Origin: an archaeon
GTDB taxonomy: Archaea; Aenigmatarchaeota; Aenigmatarchaeia; GW2011-AR5; GCA-2688965
DNA length: 7,616 bases
Direction of reading: 5' to 3'
NCBI GenBank assembly: GCA_002688965.1
Contig: NZEE01000032.1
Location: forward strand, 4,219 to 11,834
The notes beneath the pieces were generated by a model. That model was not told the DNA's origin. It did no database searches and saw only the letters and a list, made by a program, of their open reading frames with translations. The position numbers were made by a program, and so were the translations under genes. This document shows, piece after piece, positions 1-7,531 of the stretch (the first letter of the stretch is position 1; each line of letters begins with the position of its first letter).

Positions 1-15
1 AAGGAAAAGAAGTAA
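1..15 (+). CDS. 3' end of an upstream gene (partial)
   Basis: Frame 1 reads Lys-Glu-Lys-Lys then TAA at 13-15. The stop overlaps the ATG of the next gene (TAATG), a typical translationally coupled phage junction. Too little is present to say what the protein is. The same purine-rich bases (AAGGA at 1-5) probably serve as the ribosome binding site of the next gene. Confidence 0.4.
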   Translation, partial: KEKK

Positions 16-1019
16 TGCCGGCACAAAGTAAATCTCAGCAACGTTTTATGGGCATGGTTCACGCCGTGCAGACGGGAGAGTTGAACTCATCTGATGCTTC
101 TAAATCTGTTGTAGATGCGGCTAAAAATATGAAGAAAGACGACGTTACGGATTTTGCTGAAACGAAACATAAAGGTCTTCCTGAAGAAAAAAAGAAAACA
201 AAGTATCCATCTCCACCTGAAGGAGACTCTAGAGGACAAAAAATTGCAGGGCTATTAGATCCTGTTAAAGATACATTAGCAAATGATATATGATTTGAGA
301 CTGCAAGTGGTTACAGATTACGGCCGCCTATTAAAAATTATATATTATTTACTTTACGTAAAATTTTACCCCTAGAATTAGTGGATAAAATATTTATTAT
401 TGGTTCTATTACAGGCCATAAGTATAAAGATACATCAGATGTTGATATCAACGTCTATTTAAAGAAGGAGATAGGACCAGAAGATGTTAAACATTATCAC
501 ACAAAAGCTAGAGCATTTAATGAGAAAAATGCACCTGGTACACGTCATCCAGTGAATTTCTACATTAGTGATTTCAAGGAGACTGAACCTTTTAAATGAG
601 CTAAGTTTGGTGTATATAGTGTACTGGATGATTTATGGATAAATCAACCTACACCTAAAGAAGAGTTACTCGATCCAAAAATTGAGTTTCATAAGGAATT
701 AAACACTGCTAAAATATTTGCAAGAAATTTCACACGAATGGTTCATGAATATGCACAGGATCTAGTAGACTATAAAGAGTTATCTAATGATCCAGATGCT
801 GAACGTCGCTTAATTTCGAAACGAAATGAATTAAATTCAGATTTAATGCGTTTAGTGGAAGAAGAGAAGAGATTACATGAAGATCGTGAGTTTGTGTACC
901 GCAAAGGATGAGGAGTTCCTAGAAAGTCATTTCGAAACTTGTTATATAAATTAATCGAGCATAATCAGTATGGCAGCGTACTAAATCAGCTCAAATCATA
1001 CCGACACCGTGAAGAATAA
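15..1019 (+). CDS. DUF3008-type domain fused to nucleotidyltransferase-fold protein, TGA read as Trp
   Basis: A 334-residue protein if TGA is Trp at 291, 597 and 909 (residues 93, 195, 299); it ends at TAA 1017-1019. Residues 1-65 match the small phage/bacterial DUF3008 family: a MPAQSKSQQRFMGMV start and the phrase FAETKHKGLPEEK. After Trp93 comes a second domain with GS at 130-131 and the DVD pair Asp142/Asp144 in the TSDVDINV segment, the metal-binding signature of the pol-beta-like nucleotidyltransferase fold. The usual third carboxylate is not obvious: the candidate strand HPVNFYI has Asn181, so activity is uncertain. Residues from about 210 are charged and helical, ending in a basic segment (GVPRKSFRNLLYKLIEH). 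The second domain has no plausible start of its own after the TGA, which favours one fused protein. TGG is used once as well. The substrate is unknown. Confidence 0.75.
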
Positions 1020-1254
1020 AAAACGATGAGTACCACGCAAAAAACATAAAAGAGTAAAGGATCCTGCAAAAGGAGTTGCCGTAACCGTTTTTAATAATAA
1101 TATTGAAGAAGCTTTACGCCGATTTAAAAAGAAAGTTGAAGAAGCTCAAATTCTTGAAACCTTTCGAAATAATCAGTTTTTTGAAAAGCCTTCTGTTGTT
1201 AAACGTAGAAAGAAAAAGGCGCGCATCGCTCTAAATAAACGAACGGGGAAATAA
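1009..1254 (+). CDS. rpsU: Phage-encoded ribosomal protein S21 (bS21)
   Basis: The frame encodes a small, very basic protein with the bS21 pattern: VAVTVFNNNIEEALRRFKKK (residues 23-42), then FFEKPSVVKRRKKKA (57-71), corresponding to the ALRRFKR and FYEKP-x-x-x-RKR signatures of bacterial S21. S21 sits on the 30S platform near the 16S rRNA 3' end and helps initiation; phage copies are thought to tune ribosomes toward phage mRNAs. The TAA at 1252-1254 abuts the terminase ATG. The start is uncertain. A GTG at 1009 gives 81 residues with TGA 1027 read as Trp7, overlapping the previous gene by 11 bases, but without a clear ribosome binding site. Alternatively the ATG at 1026 would reach this frame only through a +1 shift or a one-base error in the A6 run at 1039-1044. 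Confidence 0.82.
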
Positions 1255-2820
1255 ATGGCAAAAATTGTTGATTTAAAAGCAAGTGAGTTTGCTGAAGCTT
1301 TTCTTTATCTCAATGGGCATCAATTTTCATTGAATGATTACCCACATATGCGTGCGGTATATAATTGTAATAAAGATAAAGTAGTTTTAAAGTTTAGTAG
1401 ACAGACTGCTAAATCTACTACTTTAGCTAATATTATGGTAACTAATAGTGTTACACGACCTCATTTTAAATCTCTATTTATATCTCCGTCTGTAGATCAG
1501 ACTAAAGTATTTTCTCATGATAGAGTAAATCCTGTGATTGAGGGTAGTCCATTTATTAAAAAGAATTATTTAAATTCTCAGCTAATTCAGAATGTTTTTA
1601 TGAAGCAATTATTAAATGGCTCACGAATGTACTTACGTTATGCTAATTTAAATGCTGATAGAGTACGTGGATACTCTGCTGATATGTGTCTCTTTGACGA
1701 GATTCAGGATCAATTTGAAGATAATATTCCCGTTATTGAGGAGACAATGAGTCGGTCTATGTATAAACGGAGTTGGTTTTCTGGCACACCAAAATTAACT
1801 ATTGGACCATTAGAGGACCGATGGGAGCTTTCAAATAAGTGTGAATGAATTCCTAAGTGTGAGCATTGTAATCGTTATAACATTCTAGGTGAGGATAATA
1901 TTGGTAAAGAAGGACTGATCTGTGAAGAGTGTGGAAGATCCTTAAATGCGAGAGCTGGACAATGAATTCAGACTGGAGATAAAGATGCATATTTTACGGG
2001 ATTTCGTGTTTGCCTATTACACTTTCATAAGGCCCCTTGGGTTGATTGAAATAGAGATGTGATTCAGAAAATGGAAACACAATCTAAAAATATTTTTTTT
2101 AATGAGACTTTAGCATTACCTTATGATTCAGGTTCGGTTCCTATTACTAGAGGTGAGTTAGAAAAATGTATGATAGGTCGTGAATGGTCACCGGAGTTAC
2201 ATGACTCATCTGAGGCCGGAACTACTGGAACAGCAATTAATATTATGGGTATTGATTATGGCCCTGTAAATTCAGACCAATCTTACACGTGTATTTCTAT
2301 TGTTCGGGTGATCGATAATGATAAGTTTGAAGTTATGTGGGGTAAACGGTATGTTGGAAAAGAGGCTGAGTTTAGTTTTATTCATGAAGAGATCCCTAAA
2401 TTAATGGCGAAGTGAAAATGTGCACATTTATGTGCTGATTACGGAATGGGCGAAGCTTCTAATTCAGTACTGCGTAAGGAGTTAGGTATACAGAAAGTTA
2501 TTTCTTATCAGCATTTACCATCCCAACATGAGCTGGTTAGATGAAATAGTAAAATGCCAGCATATACATTAAATAGGACACAAGTAATGGCAAATGTTTT
2601 TGAAAAATTTAGACGACAAAAAATAATTTTACCTAAACCCCATCATCAATTAGATGAGTTAATACAAGATATTTTAAACATTCAAATTGATTATAGCTTA
2701 GAAACTAATAAAGTACGCTATATTAATAAAGGTCCGGATGATTTTTTCCATGCAACTCTATTCGCTTTGCTTGGTGCCGAGCTTATGACAGGACTAAATA
2801 CATTTAAATCTATTGGATAA
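1255..2820 (+). CDS. terL: Terminase large subunit (TerL), TGA read as Trp five times
   Basis: A 521-residue DNA-packaging motor, usual length for the family. ATPase motifs: Walker A-like SRQTAKST (residues 48-55, with Ala52 where Gly is usual), Walker B CLFDE with Asp148/Glu149, and SGTP (176-179), the motif III position. A zinc-ribbon-like insert follows, with CEHC (202-205) and CEEC (223-226) pairs. The RNase H-fold nuclease shows GIDYG (Asp334), CADYG (Asp395) and PDDFFHA (Asp495/496). In-frame TGA codons lie at 1846, 1963, 2047, 2413 and 2542 (Trp198, 237, 265, 387, 430), beside five TGG Trp codons. Both ATPase and nuclease halves stay intact only if all five TGA are read through. The ATG follows GGGG at 1245-1248 and directly abuts the S21 stop. 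TAA ends the gene. No small terminase subunit is recognised here. Confidence 0.95.
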
Positions 2821-2827
2821 ATAATCC

Positions 2828-2856
2828 TTGACAAGATCCCAACTAAATACTATATT
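2828..2856 (+). promoter_or_regulatory. Sigma70-type promoter, TTGACA-N17-TATATT
   Basis: A perfect -35 hexamer TTGACA at 2828-2833 is followed after exactly 17 bases by TATATT at 2851-2856, one mismatch from the -10 consensus. It lies in the 44-base gap between terminase and the next gene. The predicted start point, about 7 bases past the -10, falls at 2863-2864, only a base or two before the ATG at 2865. It would drive the head gene block separately from the terminase unit. Confidence 0.7.
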
Positions 2857-2864
2857 GAAACACG

Positions 2865-3866
2865 ATGAATAATCCTTATGATCTAGAACAGCTAGGCAAA
2901 GAAGCTGCTTTAAGCTATATTAGCGATAATGTAACGCTAAATGACTCTATCCTAAAGACAGCTCAAAACCATAATTTGAACCGTCAACAGGTAAATAGAG
3001 TTGTTGAGTCTGCTAATGTTGACGCTTATTTACATTTAATTAAAAAAGCTGAAGATAACTATGTTGACTTTCCCCTTGCAGATTCCGCTACCATATATAG
3101 TAACCTAAGTTATCAAGAATCCTTACCTAAATCCTCTAACGATTACGAAGCTCCCCCTACTAAAACTGCAACCTTTAATTTATTTAACATAGAAGATGCT
3201 GAATTTGAAAAAACAGCGTCTGCTAAAATAAGATATGGCCAGTTACGGAAAGAGGCTAGTGAAGTTGAAGGAAAATGTAATTATATATATGACCAAGCTG
3301 AACTTACTCGTGGAGAGTTTATTGAGAATTATAATAATTTATGGAACTTTACGAAACAAGCCGTTTTACAAGAAGAGAATTTAAATAATGTATTTAGTAT
3401 TATAAAAGAGGCCGCTCCTTCATATAGTCAATATATTAAAGATGATTTTTCAGATTATATGAAAGAAACAATGCGTCATATTGATATTACTAAAGAAGCT
3501 GCTTATACTGGAATTATTAATCCAAAATCAAATATTTATAATACCGCAAAAGAATTAGAGTATTTAGGCGATCGCTATGTAAAAATTGCAAGCGCTTTTA
3601 AACATTACATTGATCAATATAATGTTCTTCGTAAGGAAGCAGGAGCATTAGGTGGACTTAAAAAATTAATAGTTGGTGCAGGCCAAACTATCACAGGAAC
3701 AACCACTGCAATTTTAAAAGGAATGGCTAAAAATAAAGGCCTAGTTCTGGCTGGTATTGGTGGAGCAGCAGCCTATCAAGTTGGCAAGTCAAAAGGTAGA
3801 CGAAGTCAAGGCGAAATTTTACAGGCTAAAATGCTACCTGCCAAATATAGGAATATACAATATTAA
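2865..3866 (+). CDS. Uncharacterised head-region protein with repeated K-x-A motifs and hydrophobic C-terminus
   Basis: 333 residues, no recognised family. Residues 1-260 are largely helical and charged, and carry eleven Lys-x-Ala triplets (Lys12, 31, 60, 100, 116, 129, 164, 181, 210, 240, 257), mostly with a hydrophobic residue two places before the Lys, as in LRKEA, IIKEA and FEKTA. Residues 262-306 are Gly/Ala-rich and hydrophobic with two membrane-like stretches (LIVGAGQTITGTTTAIL and GLVLAGIGGAAAYQVG), followed by a basic tail (KSKGRRSQ). The one Trp is TGG. There is no Shine-Dalgarno sequence before the ATG; the promoter just upstream implies a leaderless message. The gene ends TAA, immediately followed by the next ATG. 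Position between terminase and protease suggests a virion or assembly protein; an internal or ejected head protein is possible. It does not look like a typical portal, being too short and lacking recognisable features. Confidence 0.85.
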   Translation: MNNPYDLEQLGKEAALSYISDNVTLNDSILKTAQNHNLNRQQVNRVVESANVDAYLHLIKKAEDNYVDFPLADSATIYSNLSYQESLPKSSNDYEAPPTKTATFNLFNIEDAEFEKTASAKIRYGQLRKEASEVEGKCNYIYDQAELTRGEFIENYNNLWNFTKQAVLQEENLNNVFSIIKEAAPSYSQYIKDDFSDYMKETMRHIDITKEAAYTGIINPKSNIYNTAKELEYLGDRYVKIASAFKHYIDQYNVLRKEAGALGGLKKLIVGAGQTITGTTTAILKGMAKNKGLVLAGIGGAAAYQVGKSKGRRSQGEILQAKMLPAKYRNIQY

Positions 3867-4361
3867 ATGAATAAATCTTTTACAGATGAGATTAAGAAAC
3901 ATGCGTTCCGTTTTGGAGCTAAACCTTCATGGCATAAAAATATTGGTGGATTTGCCGCTAAAGGTGCTTTAATTGCTGCAGGAGCTCTTGGTACAGAAAT
4001 GATTGCTGAAGGTACCATTGACTGGTGGCGTGAGCGTAGGAAAAATAGAGAACGCGGACCATTATTTGAGAAGATTATTGAACAGCATAAAGAATTAAAA
4101 GAATACCCATATGCAAAGGTACTACAGTATTTTGATACACTATTTGCCTTTTCACCAAGTTTAGCTAGGGATCCATTAGCTGCTGGCGCATTTATACGTC
4201 AAGCTATTAGAATGGATGAGTTTGGAGGCCCTGGACATGAAACAATTAAAAATTTAGCAACTATAGAAAAATCACAAACAGAAATTGACGAAAAAGGCAA
4301 GCCCAGATATAAATCAGTTGGAGCGTTTGGTAGCGTCGCTAAAGATATCTGGCCATCTTAG
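3867..4361 (+). CDS. Uncharacterised head-region protein with one hydrophobic segment
   Basis: 164 residues starting directly after the previous TAA and ending in TAG. The N-terminus has IKKHAFRFGAKP, with one Lys-x-Ala motif at Lys11. Residues 26-49 form a Gly/Ala-rich hydrophobic stretch (GGFAAKGALIAAGALG) that could cross a membrane. It is followed by a WWRERRKNRER basic patch (53-63). The C-terminal half (PLFEKIIEQHKELKEY, then FAFSPSLARDPLAAGAFIRQ) looks like a compact helical domain. All four Trp codons are TGG. I do not recognise the family. The hydrophobic-then-basic layout resembles the end of the preceding protein, and immediate stop-start adjacency suggests coupled translation. Confidence 0.85.
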   Translation: MNKSFTDEIKKHAFRFGAKPSWHKNIGGFAAKGALIAAGALGTEMIAEGTIDWWRERRKNRERGPLFEKIIEQHKELKEYPYAKVLQYFDTLFAFSPSLARDPLAAGAFIRQAIRMDEFGGPGHETIKNLATIEKSQTEIDEKGKPRYKSVGAFGSVAKDIWPS

Positions 4362-4375
4362 TCATTTTTTAATAA

Positions 4376-4381
4376 AAGGGG
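4376..4381 (+). promoter_or_regulatory. Ribosome binding site AAGGGG that fixes a TTG start
   Basis: AAGGGG lies six bases before the TTG at 4388. No ATG or GTG start is available in frame before the conserved protease region, and TTG followed by Asp-Lys-Ile-Leu gives a natural N-terminus. Confidence 0.65.
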
Positions 4382-4387
4382 AATTTT

Positions 4388-6187
4388 TTGGATAAAATTT
4401 TAGAATATGAGTATGGAGATCATAGCTCTGAAGTTTTTACGTTAATCCATCCTGGGTTTTTGTCCAAGGTGGCTTCTTCGTATTCGGACGAGTTAAAGGA
4501 CTTTATATCGGTGTTGACTAAAAGGCCCGGTTTTACTTACGCCCTTGTCAATGCTATGTCTGCTGGAGAACACTATGGCTCAAATAGAAACGGCGACTAT
4601 TTCCCCGTTAAAGCTCTAAAAGAGTATCATAAAACATTTGAGACCAACGGCCATGTATACAAACATCACATCAATAAAGACCCACGCAAAGCTATGGGTC
4701 GTGTGGCGTTTTCTCATTATAACCCGTCCATGAATCGTGTAGAGCTCATCCTAGAGCTCAGCGATGAGAAGGCCGAACCTGTAGTAGCCCGATTAAATAA
4801 GGGTGAACTACCAGCAGTGTCTATGGGATGTAAAGTTCCATATGACGTTTGTTCTATATGTGGCAACCGGGCCAAAACTTTAGCATTTTATTGTAAGCAT
4901 CTTAAGGATGAGATGAATAAAGTGTACGATGATGGACGTAGAGTTTGCGCCATCAACACAATGCCTAAGTTCTTTGATCTTAGTATTGTAACCATACCTG
5001 CTGATACTACAGCAGGATTTTTATCAAAAGTAGCGAGTGCTCAACCTCAATTGAGTGCTGCATTAGGTGTAGAGTTTAATAAAGCTGGAGATTTAATATC
5101 TGAAAGCGATATTAAAAAGAAAATTACTGCCCCTGCTGATGTTACTTTCAGTAAAGATCCAGATAATTTAGTATCGAGTAGTCAAAGAAAGCTTCCTGAT
5201 TCAGTGATGAAGGAGCTATCTAAGCATGCTTTTGCAGACGTACTGTCAAGCATGTTAGTCATGAAAATGATGCCCTCCAGGTCTGATTTTCAAAAATTAG
5301 CTTTATATTGCTCAGGTCATAAGGATATTGCCGATAAGCTAGATAAAGCTGGAATTATTTTTGATGCAGATTTGGATGCTACTGCTGACGTGACGGATCT
5401 TAGTGCCTCTAATTTTAATATTAAAGTCGCTAATATTTTAAAGACCTCAGTAGCAGACCTAAGTTTAAGTAAACCGTTGATAATATCTAGAGCACTTGAG
5501 AAAGTAGCGTATCCGTTTGGTAACAGTGGAAAAGAAACTAACACTAAACAACGTGAAAAAAATGCTCCAGATTTAGAAGCTCTACGAGCCTTACTGGAAG
5601 AATATGGATTAATGCCAAAAGGTAAGGAAATTAGTGAGCAAGAATGGGATAATTGGAATAAGCAATTAGGTAACGAACCTCCTTCTTGGAGAAAATTTAT
5701 CTTTGGAAGTTCTGAAGATCCAACATTTAAACCTCATAAAAGTCCTTTAGGGGCCTTAACAGGAATAGGAGCTGGCTATGCTGGCTATGCTAGACTTGTA
5801 AGTGGTCCTGAATCAGTTGGTGTAAAAGCTATTTTAGCTCGAAATCCGTGAATCATGCCCCTCATTGTAGGAGCTGGTACGCTGAGTTCATTGGCAATGC
5901 AAAATACGTATTTTCGTAAATCCGCTAGTCGGTCCGTTATGGTACCGAGTTTGTTTGTAACGGTTCCACTAAGTTATTTAATGGCCGGAAAAGCTGAAGC
6001 AGATGTACGCCGTGATAAAGCGATATCGCGAACGGATAATTTCGTAAGAAAGCATCCGTTCTTAACAGCAATAGGAATGAGTGGTGGGTTATCAACTGGA
6101 TTAAGGCTTATAAAACGGGCGGAAGTGTTATCACAAATGGATTCTGGTTCTCTCGATAAGATGTATAACCAGTTAATCATTAACTAA
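4388..6187 (+). CDS. Prohead (capsid maturation) protease with zinc-finger-like insert and long C-terminal extension
   Basis: 599 residues from a TTG start, with TGA 5849-5851 read as Trp488; TAA ends it. Residues 1-215 carry the HK97-type/herpes assemblin-like protease signatures: YKHHINKDP with candidate catalytic His93 or His94, LPAVSMG with candidate nucleophile Ser145 about 51 residues later, and FFDLSIVTIPADTTA (195-209), matching the conserved SLVTxPA strand. Between these, CSIC (155-158) and CKH (169-171) could bind zinc. The remaining 380 residues are unusual: a helical region with several K-x-A motifs (eight in the whole protein, including FLSKVAS at both 24-30 and 211-217), then Gly/Ala-rich hydrophobic stretches near 455-470, 490-503 and 518-533. 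No ribosome binding site precedes the ATG at 5855, so a separate second gene is unlikely. It would cleave scaffold and head proteins, perhaps itself. Confidence 0.88.
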
Positions 6188-6196
6188 AAAAAGAAT

Positions 6197-6202
6197 AAGG
6201 AG
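6197..6202 (+). promoter_or_regulatory. Ribosome binding site AAGGAG
   Basis: AAGGAG sits ten bases before the ATG at 6213, a slightly long spacing. It lies in the only gap (6188-6212) between the protease and the acidic protein gene. Confidence 0.6.
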
Positions 6203-6212
6203 ATTAGTAATT

Positions 6213-6863
6213 ATGGCTAAAGGACTTAACATAGACGAAATTCTTGCTTCTTTAGAGCAGGAAAAAACTGCTGAAGAAACATTCGCAGAAGGCGTAAGTT
6301 CCGAAGAAAAAGTAGTAGAAACAGCTGACTCCAATGCTGAAGTTGTTGAAACTCCAGCTCCTAAAGCCGATGCTGAAGAAACTACTAAATCTGAAGAAAA
6401 AACTGCTGAGTCTACTGATGAGACGCACGATGATGCTGAGCTTGAAAAAGCTGCAGCTGAAATGGACGCTCAAGGTAGAATTATGGCTAAAGCGTTCATG
6501 GATGAACTTCAGAAGATTGCTGTTGGTGACAGTGGATATATTCCACACGCTGACGATGCAAAAAAAGGCGTTAATGAACTTGTTAAAGGCGATGTACCTG
6601 AAGGTGGAAAAGTGGATGCTGTTGTAGCAAAACTTCAAGAACTAGAAGGCGCGTCTAGAGCAGGATCATACGTACAACATGGTGATCAACCAGTTCCAGC
6701 TGCACCGAAAGCTGTAGATGAAACTTTTGGATCAACTGCCTCCGACATGGGTAAAGCTGCAGAAGCAACTGCTTCTGAAGAAGAAACTCCTGAAGGAAGA
6801 ATAGTTGGTGCCTTATATGACTCATATTTTGGCACTCCAGAGGAGGGTTCAGAAAATGAGTAA
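6213..6863 (+). CDS. Acidic scaffold-like protein
   Basis: 216 residues, strongly acidic, low in hydrophobic residues and without Trp or Cys. Residues 18-85 are Glu/Ala/Thr-rich and probably disordered. A helical module GRIMAKAFMDELQKIA lies at 88-103; its GxIMAxxFxxEL core recurs in the next protein. K-x-A motifs occur at Lys18, 63, 79, 101 and 181. A 14-base direct repeat (6261-6274 and 6396-6409) encodes the same EKTAE peptide. The tail GRIVGALYDSYFGTPEEG is another short ordered piece. Charge, low complexity and position between a prohead protease and a probable capsid gene suggest a scaffold or core protein that is cleaved, but no family is recognised. ATG has AAGGAG upstream; the TAA overlaps the start region of the next gene. 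Confidence 0.85.
   Translation: MAKGLNIDEILASLEQEKTAEETFAEGVSSEEKVVETADSNAEVVETPAPKADAEETTKSEEKTAESTDETHDDAELEKAAAEMDAQGRIMAKAFMDELQKIAVGDSGYIPHADDAKKGVNELVKGDVPEGGKVDAVVAKLQELEGASRAGSYVQHGDQPVPAAPKAVDETFGSTASDMGKAAEATASEEETPEGRIVGALYDSYFGTPEEGSENE
6261..6409 (+). repeat. Two copies of a 14-base direct repeat encoding EKTAE
   Basis: GAAAAAACTGCTGA occurs at 6261-6274 and 6396-6409 inside the acidic protein gene. The identical bases keep the same frame and repeat the Lys-Thr-Ala motif, so the repeat may reflect duplication of a short peptide element in a low-complexity coding region. Confidence 0.6.
6841..6846 (+). promoter_or_regulatory. Ribosome binding site AGGAGG choosing the ATG at 6856
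   Basis: AGGAGG lies nine bases before ATG 6856, inside the end of the preceding gene. It makes this start much more likely than the in-frame ATG at 6805, which would overlap the upstream gene by nearly 60 bases. Confidence 0.7.
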
Positions 6864-7188
6864 TTTAATGGACACTTATCAAAAAATGCAGAAGTCAGCT
6901 ACGGAGGTAGCTGCTGCAGAGTCTTTAGAAAAAGAAGCTCAAGAAATAACAAATGCTAGAGTTGAAGTTCTTGCTAAATATGCAGAAGCTGCAAACGGTG
7001 TTCTTACTGAAGAATATGGTGAAGATTACACAGAAGAAGATGTTGCTAAGTTAGCAGCATATCTGATTGATCGCGACATTGATGAAGAAGAGAATGTTGA
7101 AAAAGTAGCTGAGTATGTAGAAGCAGGACAAATAATGGCTCGTTCTTTTGTAGAAGAGCTTTCTGGTGCTGAAGAGGAAGCTGAGTAG
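6856..7188 (+). CDS. Small acidic head-assembly protein sharing a module with its upstream neighbour
   Basis: 110 residues from ATG 6856, overlapping the previous stop by eight bases; it ends in TAG. It is helical and acidic, with K-x-A motifs at Lys13, 26, 41, 65 and 83, all with a hydrophobic residue two places upstream (MQKSA, LEKEA, LAKYA, VAKLA, VEKVA). Residues 91-105, GQIMARSFVEELSGA, resemble GRIMAKAFMDELQKIA of the upstream acidic protein. There is no Trp or Cys. A scaffold or minor inner-head role fits composition and place; the family is not recognised. Confidence 0.82.
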   Translation: MSNLMDTYQKMQKSATEVAAAESLEKEAQEITNARVEVLAKYAEAANGVLTEEYGEDYTEEDVAKLAAYLIDRDIDEEENVEKVAEYVEAGQIMARSFVEELSGAEEEAE

Positions 7189-7195
7189 GTAAACT

Positions 7196-7531
7196 ATGGC
7201 TTCAAACCAGAAATTGATAAAAACTGCAGCCGCAGCGATTAAACAGCTTAAAGCAGAAACTGATGAACTACGTTCAAAGGTTGCTGTTTATGGGCGTGTT
7301 CAATCTATTGTTTCTGGATTACATGAGTCTGGAAGTATTGCGTCAGAAGATATTTTTGCTATTACAGAAAAATTAGCTTCTAAGACGCCGGAGGAACTCG
7401 ACGTTGTTGAGAAGGCGATTGAACTCCAAGGGCCTGGAAATTCGGATTTCACCTTTGGGAAATTAAGCGAACGCCCTCAAGATGATGGGAGTATAGATCC
7501 TCTTACAAAAATGCTTCTAGAAGATTATTAA
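7196..7531 (+). CDS. Small uncharacterised protein with N-terminal coiled-coil-like helix
   Basis: 111 residues, ATG seven bases after the previous TAG, ending in TAA. Residues 4-33 (for example LIKTAAAAIKQLKAETDEL) look like a long amphipathic helix or coiled coil. K-x-A motifs are at Lys9, 28 and 59. Residues 34-75 (VQSIVSGLHESGSIASEDIF, then EKLASKTPEELDVVEKAIEL) look like a small helical domain, and the acidic tail ends LTKMLLEDY. There is no strong ribosome binding site, so translation may be coupled to the preceding gene. By position immediately before a probable capsid gene it may be a scaffold or chaperone-like protein; this is inference. Confidence 0.82.
   Translation: MASNQKLIKTAAAAIKQLKAETDELRSKVAVYGRVQSIVSGLHESGSIASEDIFAITEKLASKTPEELDVVEKAIELQGPGNSDFTFGKLSERPQDDGSIDPLTKMLLEDY

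What the first reader, a model, noticed from the sequence alone, without database searches (positions are those of the whole stretch)
291..5851. Phage head region that needs TGA read as tryptophan
Seen directly: terminase (5), the first gene (3), the protease (1) and possibly S21 (1) contain in-frame TGA, with no TAA or TAG interruptions, and no gene ends in TGA. Random decay would not choose one stop codon and spare every motif. Known: TGA=Trp (code 4) is used by Mollicutes and some reduced bacteria, and some phages recode stops independently of the host. Arg codons here include CGA, CGC and CGG, which is unlike a very AT-biased mycoplasma. Which case applies here is open.
Basis: partly seen in the sequence, partly recalled or inferred. 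Interest (0 to 1): 0.85.

Follow-up and report, generated by a model that had tools for sequence, protein, structure and literature searches.

The report
Phage genes reading TGA as tryptophan
This piece of a bacterial virus writes tryptophan with a codon that normally means stop, and large relatives carry an odd transfer RNA with two anticodon loops that probably makes this possible.

Summary
In detail: ten in-frame TGA codons, no in-frame TAA or TAG, nine genes all ending in TAA or TAG. Seven TGAs fall on columns where Trp dominates in homologues, one on a Tyr/Trp/Phe column, two on columns without Trp. TGA reads as Trp in this large-phage packaging/head region; that is a known kind (code 4 phages).

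The window holds no tRNA, so I looked at relatives. Recoded ones of 205-210 kb carry, just before an amidase gene, a 97-99 nt UCA tRNA whose "variable arm" is a second anticodon stem-loop with the Trp anticodon CCA. Ten of 10 testable recoded lysis loci have it, 0 of 9 unrecoded. An IMG/VR pattern scan gave 77 hits, 73 tRNA-like, 48 after dereplication. In a scan not asking for CCA, 33 of 34 long UCA tRNAs held TCCAA.

Best reading: the UCA loop decodes UGA; the CCA loop keeps the identity that host TrpRS needs. The architecture is well supported by sequence; its function is inferred, and its presence in the window's own phage is inferred from kin. Paper listings I searched showed no description of it.

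The parts
15..1019 (+). Gene 1: DUF3008 domain plus nucleotidyltransferase-like domain; in-frame TGA at 291-293, 597-599, 909-911
   Evidence: ORF in code 4; PF11450, and PF18765 below its cut-off; codons; TGA columns aa93 W 39 of 45, aa195 D 28 of 45 and no W, aa299 W 37 of 45 loci
1009..1254 (+). bS21 ribosomal protein gene; in-frame TGA at 1027-1029, near the start, upstream of the domain
   Evidence: PF01165 E 1.9e-17, residues 25-72; TGA column has no W in 8 loci
1255..2820 (+). Terminase large subunit; in-frame TGA at 1846-1848, 1963-1965, 2047-2049, 2413-2415, 2542-2544
   Evidence: PF05876 and phrog_675; 120 listed homologues of 296: W 40 (Y 61, F 19), 120, 120, 108, 101 of 120
2865..3866 (+). 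Conserved gene, function not assigned; no TGA
   Evidence: no Pfam or PHROG hit; found in 61 of 80 TerL loci
3867..4361 (+). Conserved gene, function not assigned; no TGA, 4 TGG, ends TAG
   Evidence: 61 of 80 loci
4388..6187 (+). Head maturation protease-like gene; in-frame TGA at 5849-5851
   Evidence: phrog_18299 head maturation protease E 1.8e-6; best hit phrog_2774 of unknown function; no Pfam hit; TGA column W 57 of 58 loci
6213..6863 (+). Conserved gene, no Trp codon
   Evidence: 52 of 80 loci
6856..7188 (+). Conserved gene, ends TAG
   Evidence: 59 of 80 loci
7196..7531 (+). Conserved gene
   Evidence: 43 of 80 loci

Best explanation
The window is the packaging and head region of a large, uncultured tailed phage that reads UGA as tryptophan. 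Shown here: the Trp assignment, and its patchy spread in the TerL family. Inferred for this phage from kin: it supplies its own UGA reader, a tRNA of about 97 nt with two anticodon stem-loops in tandem, encoded beside the lysis genes. Loop 1 (CUUCAAA, anticodon UCA) sits right after the D arm and reads UGA on the ribosome. Loop 2 (xUCCAAy, anticodon CCA) sits before the T arm, where a class II tRNA has its variable arm. Inferred function: loop 2 presents C34 C35 A36, which with G73 and A1-U72 are identity elements for bacterial TrpRS, so the host's own TrpRS charges the tRNA, while loop 1 decodes. The two jobs of an anticodon, identity and decoding, would be split over two arms.
For: TGA = Trp; coding density rises with TGA as sense in recoded relatives (G001 .660 to .918, G004 .787 to .872, G005 .777 to .893, G006 .775 to .892), not in unrecoded G017 (.902 to .892). 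Double-loop tRNA: 10 of 10 testable recoded lysis loci (5 lineages), 0 of 9 unrecoded. Of 77 pattern hits 73 are tRNA-like by acceptor, T stem and first anticodon stem alone, 48 after dereplication; the stem around the CCA loop pairs in 215 of 240 cells against 0.494 in shuffles (maximum 0.617), 39 different 5' stems; centring on xTCCAAy gives 4.48 of 5 pairs, shifted centres 1.2-2.2. Scan without CCA asked: 33 of 34 long UCA tRNAs (23 of 24 representatives) hold TCCAA. G73 in 48 of 48, A1-U72 in 39 of 48, as listed for bacterial tRNATrp in PMC9976931 (passages). BLAST aligns one such tRNA (L222) to an annotated phage tRNA-Trp(cca) in two pieces offset by 23 bases, about one anticodon arm. One lineage with an ordinary UCA tRNA encodes its own TrpRS; 0 of 57 double-loop records searched do.
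Against: No tRNA lies in the window nor in the 26 kb of its nearest relative, so the tRNA of this phage is not seen. E. coli TrpRS is recalled to charge UCA tRNATrp, so loop 2 may not be needed. The TrpRS contrast rests on one ordinary-UCA lineage of five. Only 26 of 48 keep G2-C71, 19 have C2-G71. The UCA tRNA of G006 and G008 passes the Rfam tRNA-Sec cut-off (48.5 against 47 bits; G004 32.5, G005 31.1; a Ser tRNA of G006 scores 50.3). One long UCA tRNA (L320) lacks TCCAA, and L206 pairs only 1 of 5 around it. Loops of 9 nt pair almost as well as 7 (4.44 against 4.48). Folding z-scores of five examples are ordinary (-0.7 to -2.2) and one (L186) folds otherwise at its energy minimum. How TrpRS would reach loop 2 is not modelled.
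Confidence: 0.6

Rival explanations
1. Recoding by an ordinary route: the phage or host supplies a normal tRNA-Trp(UCA), or a tRNA-Trp(CCA) that misreads UGA, and the double-loop tRNA of relatives is not what this phage uses.
For: Class I UCA tRNAs exist in other recoded phage records (L315/L316, L318/L321, L322, L328, L330). Recoded G004, G005 and G006 also carry tRNA-Trp(CCA), and tRNATrpCCA with a 4-bp anticodon stem reads UGA in some organisms (PMC13092985, passages); in G005 one anticodon-stem pair of that tRNA is an A-C mismatch.
Against: 10 of 10 testable recoded lysis loci have the double-loop tRNA; unrecoded G018 also has tRNA-Trp(CCA), so that tRNA does not track recoding.
Confidence: 0.2
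2. The host itself uses TGA = Trp (Mollicutes or a reduced bacterium) and the phage merely follows.
For: Not excluded for the window: host unknown.
Against: Close relatives are unrecoded (L027 is sister to window plus L001; at least 8 switches); long recoded relatives bring their own UCA tRNA; GC 0.37 and use of all CGN codons; a double-loop tRNA sits in a Bacteroides strain record.
Confidence: 0.07
3. Loop 2 is a decoy for anticodon nucleases or a second decoding loop for UGG, not an identity element for TrpRS.
For: Loop 2 keeps U33 and A37 next to CCA; the search pattern itself fixed these letters, but 33 of 34 long tRNAs from the free scan have them too. Host anticodon nucleases are a known phage defence (recalled).
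Against: G at position 32 in 29 of 48 loop 2 sequences, unusual for a decoding loop (recalled); G004, G005 and G006 already carry tRNA-Trp(CCA) for UGG; a decoy need not be tied to recoding, yet the 9 unrecoded lysis loci lack it.
Confidence: 0.25
4. Pseudogenisation or sequencing errors: the TGA codons are decay.
For: Two of ten TGAs are not at Trp columns.
Against: Only one of three stops appears, mostly at Trp columns, and independent relatives do the same, such as L001 with 9 TGA and no TGG in the matched TerL.
Confidence: 0.01

Closest known systems
Code 4 (TGA = Trp) phages, e.g. Zeta crAss-like phage Lera (PMC12386605, passages) and crAss-like phages of PMC7886860 (passages)
   Same: TGA read as Trp in TerL and structural genes, phage-encoded UCA tRNA, also an apparently idle CUA tRNA (Lera; here in G005 and G006)
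   Different: Best listed TerL match of the window in the phage collection is 29.3% identity (25 of 207 records listed); the UCA tRNA of relatives has two anticodon loops; the passages I saw give no tRNA structure, and the Lera record is not held
Bacterial tRNA-Sec (Rfam RF01852)
   Same: UCA anticodon, long arm before the T arm; ARAGORN with the bacterial code of 48 representatives SeC; G006 and G008 pass the Rfam cut-off
   Different: 7-bp acceptor, Trp acceptor identity, CCA in a loop in register; in 14 Sec-like genome hits that hold TCCAA the same register pairs 1 of 5 in 10, and 3, 3, 4 and 5 in the others
tRNATrpCCA with 4-bp anticodon stem (Blastocrithidia type; PMC13092985, passages)
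   Same: A Trp tRNA altered so that UGA is read as Trp
   Different: There the CCA loop itself reads UGA; here a separate UCA loop is added
Amber suppressor tRNAs with theta ribozymes in gut phages (PMC10879173, passages)
   Same: Phage suppressor tRNA as code switch
   Different: Mostly UAG/CUA, ribozyme beside the tRNA; the passages do not describe a second anticodon arm

Membership tests
Code 4 recoded phage | In-frame TGA at Trp-conserved columns | tested here: met
   7 of 10 TGA at W-dominated columns, 1 aromatic, 2 not W
Code 4 recoded phage | TGA not used as stop | tested here: met
   0 of 9 genes in the window end in TGA
Code 4 recoded phage | Phage-encoded UGA suppressor tRNA | tested here: inconclusive
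   none in the 7.6 kb window; present in recoded relatives G004, G005, G006
Code 4 recoded phage | Host uses the standard code | not testable with these tools
   host of the window unknown; a double-loop tRNA lies in a Bacteroides strain record elsewhere
tRNA-Trp (bacterial identity set of PMC9976931) | G73 and A1-U72 | tested here: met
   48 of 48 and 39 of 48 (9 are G1-U72), tRNAs of other phages
tRNA-Trp (bacterial identity set of PMC9976931) | CCA anticodon in the anticodon arm | tested here: not met
   the arm in anticodon position has UCA; CCA sits in a second arm. So it is filed as Trp-like, not as a canonical member
tRNA-Sec | 8-bp acceptor stem (recalled) and Sec insertion | tested here: not met
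   7-bp acceptor pairs 334 of 336 (an eighth pair was not tested); TGA columns are Trp
tRNA-Sec | Match to Rfam RF01852 above its gathering score | tested here: inconclusive
   met for G006 and G008 (48.5 of 47 bits), not for G004 (32.5) and G005 (31.1); a tRNA-Ser of G006 also passes (50.3)
Mollicute-type host code | Whole lineage recoded with the host | tested here: not met
   20 of 81 TerL rows have in-frame TGA, at least 8 changes on the tree

The most novel reading that the evidence does not exclude
A natural class of tRNA with two working anticodon arms exists in many phages: one arm decodes (UCA for UGA), the other is read by the synthetase (CCA for TrpRS). By splitting identity from decoding, a phage can take over a stop codon while relying on an unchanged host synthetase. 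The molecule may switch between two L-shapes, one fitting TrpRS and one the ribosome. It may have been overlooked because tRNA finders call it SeC or a class II tRNA or miss it, and it may include suppressor tRNAs that other studies could not detect in recoded phages.
Probability: 0.45. Interest if true: 0.96.

Novelty: new variant of a known kind. Interest (0 to 1): 0.88.

Why it matters
Stop-codon recoding by phages is known, but why no suppressor tRNA is found in some recoded genomes is open (PMC7886860 and PMC12386605, passages). A tRNA with separate identity and decoding arms would be a new answer to a basic limit: changing an anticodon can spoil recognition by synthetases that read it. 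It is directly testable with purified parts and would offer a natural model for suppressor tRNAs that work with a host synthetase.

Tried and rejected
Search for tRNAs in the TerL-flanking stretches of 41 of 80 loci: none. TAG recoding, suggested by the CUA tRNA in G005 and G006: not supported, since tblastn of 190 proteins of unrecoded G017 (49-51 of them match G004, G005, G006) shows 0 in-frame TAG and 0 TAA against 13, 27 and 29 TGA, of them 6, 12 and 11 opposite W. tRNA-Sec or Ser as the identity of the UCA tRNA: rejected on columns (no Ser opposite TGA) and on structure, in spite of the Rfam tRNA-Sec match of G006. Chance CCA in the extra arm: rejected. Release factors PF00472: 0 of 38 records. 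A cultured phage with such a tRNA by BLAST of three of them: none seen among the listed rows (25 of 138, 9 of 9, 25 of 317 records); three hits looked at closer are two ordinary tRNA-Trp(cca) and a stretch without the double loop in a Salmonella phage. TerL of the window in 39 double-loop records: 0 of 39, many are fragments, and the tool warns that an empty answer shows nothing without a positive record. Coding-density gain of at least .05 over 38 double-loop loci of 5 kb or more (of 48 representatives): TGA as sense 33, TAG as sense 14, TAA as sense 27; the last two show that fused ORFs inflate this measure, so I compare with unrecoded TerL loci, 3 of 31 (31 of 61, picked by me). Ordinary-UCA scan: 9 hits, of which L327 and L329 are not UCA tRNAs by ARAGORN.
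Full report
1. What is in the window. Reading with TGA as a sense codon gives nine co-directed genes: a DUF3008/nucleotidyltransferase-like protein, bS21, the large terminase, two unassigned conserved genes, a head-protease-like gene and three small conserved genes. Ten TGA codons lie in frame in four of them, no TAA or TAG does, and all nine end in TAA (7) or TAG (2). The finding is confirmed.

2. What TGA means. In an alignment of TerL with the 120 listed homologues (of 296 found), the five TGA columns hold W in 40 (with Y 61, F 19), 120, 120, 108 and 101 rows; 8 of 521 columns have W as commonest residue. The database proteins may already have been called with a suitable code, so I also read codons in 80 TerL loci fetched from IMG/VR (some are near copies): gene 1 aa93 W in 39 of 45 loci, 26 of them TGG; aa299 W in 37 of 45, 24 TGG; protease aa488 W in 57 of 58, 47 TGG. 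Two TGAs do not sit on Trp columns: gene 1 aa195 (Asp in 28 of 45, no W) and S21 aa7 (no W in 8 loci). With 190 proteins of the unrecoded relative G017 as queries, of which 49 to 51 match, in-frame TGA appears 13, 27 and 29 times in G004, G005 and G006 with W the commonest residue opposite (6, 12, 11), and in-frame TAG and TAA not once.

3. How the trait is spread. Of 81 TerL rows (80 loci and the window), 20 have in-frame TGA; on a quick tree at least 8 changes are needed, the window pairs with recoded L001 (SH-aLRT 99) and the next row, L027, is unrecoded. The code therefore switches at short distances, which speaks for a phage-borne switch.

4. The suppressor. Neither the window nor the 26 kb contig of L001 holds a tRNA. 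The long recoded relatives do: ARAGORN tRNAs in G004, G005 and G006, tRNA-Trp(CCA) among them, and in G004 and G006 one is a lone UCA tRNA of 97-98 nt far from the tRNA cluster. G005 has a 99-nt counterpart that ARAGORN misses. In G006 the order is GTA_holin_3TM holin, one small ORF, tRNA, Amidase_2; in G005 holin, two small ORFs, tRNA, amidase (the G005 amidase placed by alignment, 50% identity to that of G004). In G004 the amidase follows the tRNA as well, but I did not identify a holin before it. Unrecoded G017 shows no UCA tRNA in 189 kb by ARAGORN.

5. Two anticodon arms. Folding of five lineages gives acceptor, D arm, anticodon arm with loop CUUCAAA, a further arm with a 7-nt loop, and T arm. 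The further loop is GUCCAAA in L181, L182 and L196 and UUCCAAC in L183; in L186 it is GUCCAAG by register, while its lowest-energy fold pairs that stretch otherwise. In the five-sequence consensus 15 of 25 pairs have a change on both sides. The extra loop looks like an anticodon loop with the Trp anticodon CCA. Among 21 amidase loci, 10 recoded ones with enough upstream DNA all have the tRNA (5 lineages; two loci by nhmmer and loop motif, not by ARAGORN), 9 unrecoded ones show none in the stretch fetched, and 2 (L189, L190) are cut too short to tell.

6. How common and how sure. A pattern with both loops found 77 stretches in IMG/VR, some in the same contigs as above. Judged by acceptor, T stem and first anticodon stem only, 73 are tRNA-like (rejected L203, L243, L251, L258) and 48 remain after dereplication. 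The stem around the CCA loop, which the pattern did not ask for, pairs in 215 of 240 cells against a shuffle mean of 0.494 and maximum of 0.617, with 39 different 5' stems; all five pairs form in 28 of 48. Shifting the centre by 1 to 3 bases drops the mean from 4.48 to 1.2-2.2 pairs; loops of 3, 5 and 9 nt score 3.73, 3.69 and 4.44, so loop size is less sharply fixed than the centre. The shuffles ignore kinship. A second pattern that asks for UCA and a Trp-like acceptor end but not for CCA gave 45 stretches; 39 are tRNA-like, 5 of ordinary length and 34 long, and 33 of the 34 long ones (23 of 24 representatives) hold TCCAA between loop 1 and the T arm. In GTDB genomes the first pattern gave 35 hits: 16 are not tRNA-like, 14 look like tRNA-Sec (by eye, from acceptor and end), where the register pairs 1 of 5 in 10 and 3, 3, 4 and 5 in four, and 5 are double-loop tRNAs, in records titled Bacteroides neonati MS4 (strain), Coriobacteriia, Bacillota, Candidatus Scybalousia and Methanobrevibacter (MAGs). 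The Bacteroides tRNA is identical to that of an IMG/VR record (L271) with a phage terminase and, as I read the sequences without a family search, an integrase and a transposase gene; that terminase has one TGA, opposite W in 53 of 83 ungapped homologues, 37 of 120 having a gap there.

7. Mechanism. Shown: UCA in the arm next to the D arm, CCA in the next arm, Trp acceptor features (G73 48 of 48; A1-U72 39 and G1-U72 9; G3-C70 39; G2-C71 only 26). PMC9976931 lists G73, A1-U72, G2-C71, G3-C70, G4-C69, G5-C68, A9 and C34 C35 A36 for bacterial tRNATrp (passages). The tRNA of L222 aligns to an annotated tRNA-Trp(cca) of a Bacillus phage in two pieces offset by 23 bases, as if one anticodon arm had been added. 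Inferred: loop 2 satisfies TrpRS, loop 1 decodes. In support, 29 of 48 loop 2 sequences have G at position 32, which is unusual for decoding (recalled). The TrpRS-type gene PF00579 is found in 2 of 7 records with ordinary UCA tRNAs, both of one lineage of five; one of the two was tested and is called trpS. It is found in 0 of 57 double-loop records (28, 29). Many records are fragments and the contrast rests on one lineage, so it is a hint. A reason it may have been overlooked: ARAGORN with the bacterial code of 48 representatives SeC and misses 4.

8. Known and new. TGA = Trp phages are known, so the window itself is a new member of that kind. Papers seen as passages: PMC12386605 reports UCA and CUA suppressors in phage Lera and recoded genomes without a detected suppressor; PMC7886860 proposes a divergent suppressor that escapes detection; PMC13037316 mentions tRNA introns in recoded jumbo phages that could encode another tRNA, citing earlier work, which might be a view of the same objects. 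An earlier study (Borges and others 2022, recalled) was not found under the DOI I tried. The listings of searches (titles and abstract starts of 20 of 954, 40 of 61, 20 of 122, 20 of 55, 5 of 5 and 12 of 13 papers) showed no description of a natural tRNA with two anticodon arms; subscription papers and preprints are largely outside that library, so priority is not settled.

9. Limits. The tRNA is not seen in this phage. Function of loop 2 is untested. The host of the window is unknown. Most records are uncultured and partial.

Noticed in passing
window 15-7531: TGA against TGG is 9 to 6 in genes 1-3 and 1 to 8 in genes 4-9 (Fisher p 0.033); G001 looks alike (10:0 in the TerL frame, few TGA in the next head genes). 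TGA may be avoided in highly expressed virion genes.
   Followed up: partly
G005 115365-115439, G006 105393-105469 (complement): A CUA (UAG-reading) tRNA is present although no in-frame TAG was found in matched genes; PMC12386605 reports the same riddle in phage Lera (passages).
   Followed up: partly
L183 3841-3939 (G005): This double-loop tRNA lacks the usual GG of the D loop and the TTC of the T loop together, perhaps a swapped elbow contact.
   Followed up: no
L320 2905-3002: A long UCA tRNA with Trp-like acceptor whose extra segment holds no TCCAA.
   Followed up: no
L325 1402-2487: A tryptophan--tRNA ligase gene (TIGR00233) in a recoded phage with an ordinary UCA tRNA; it could be a UCA-tolerant enzyme.
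   Followed up: partly
L271 3449-4738: What reads like a transposase gene lies just beside the terminase frame of the Bacteroides neonati phage region, so that phage may be inactive (no family search).
   Followed up: no
window 1009-1254: A phage bS21 gene whose start overlaps gene 1 and whose frame holds one early TGA.
   Followed up: no
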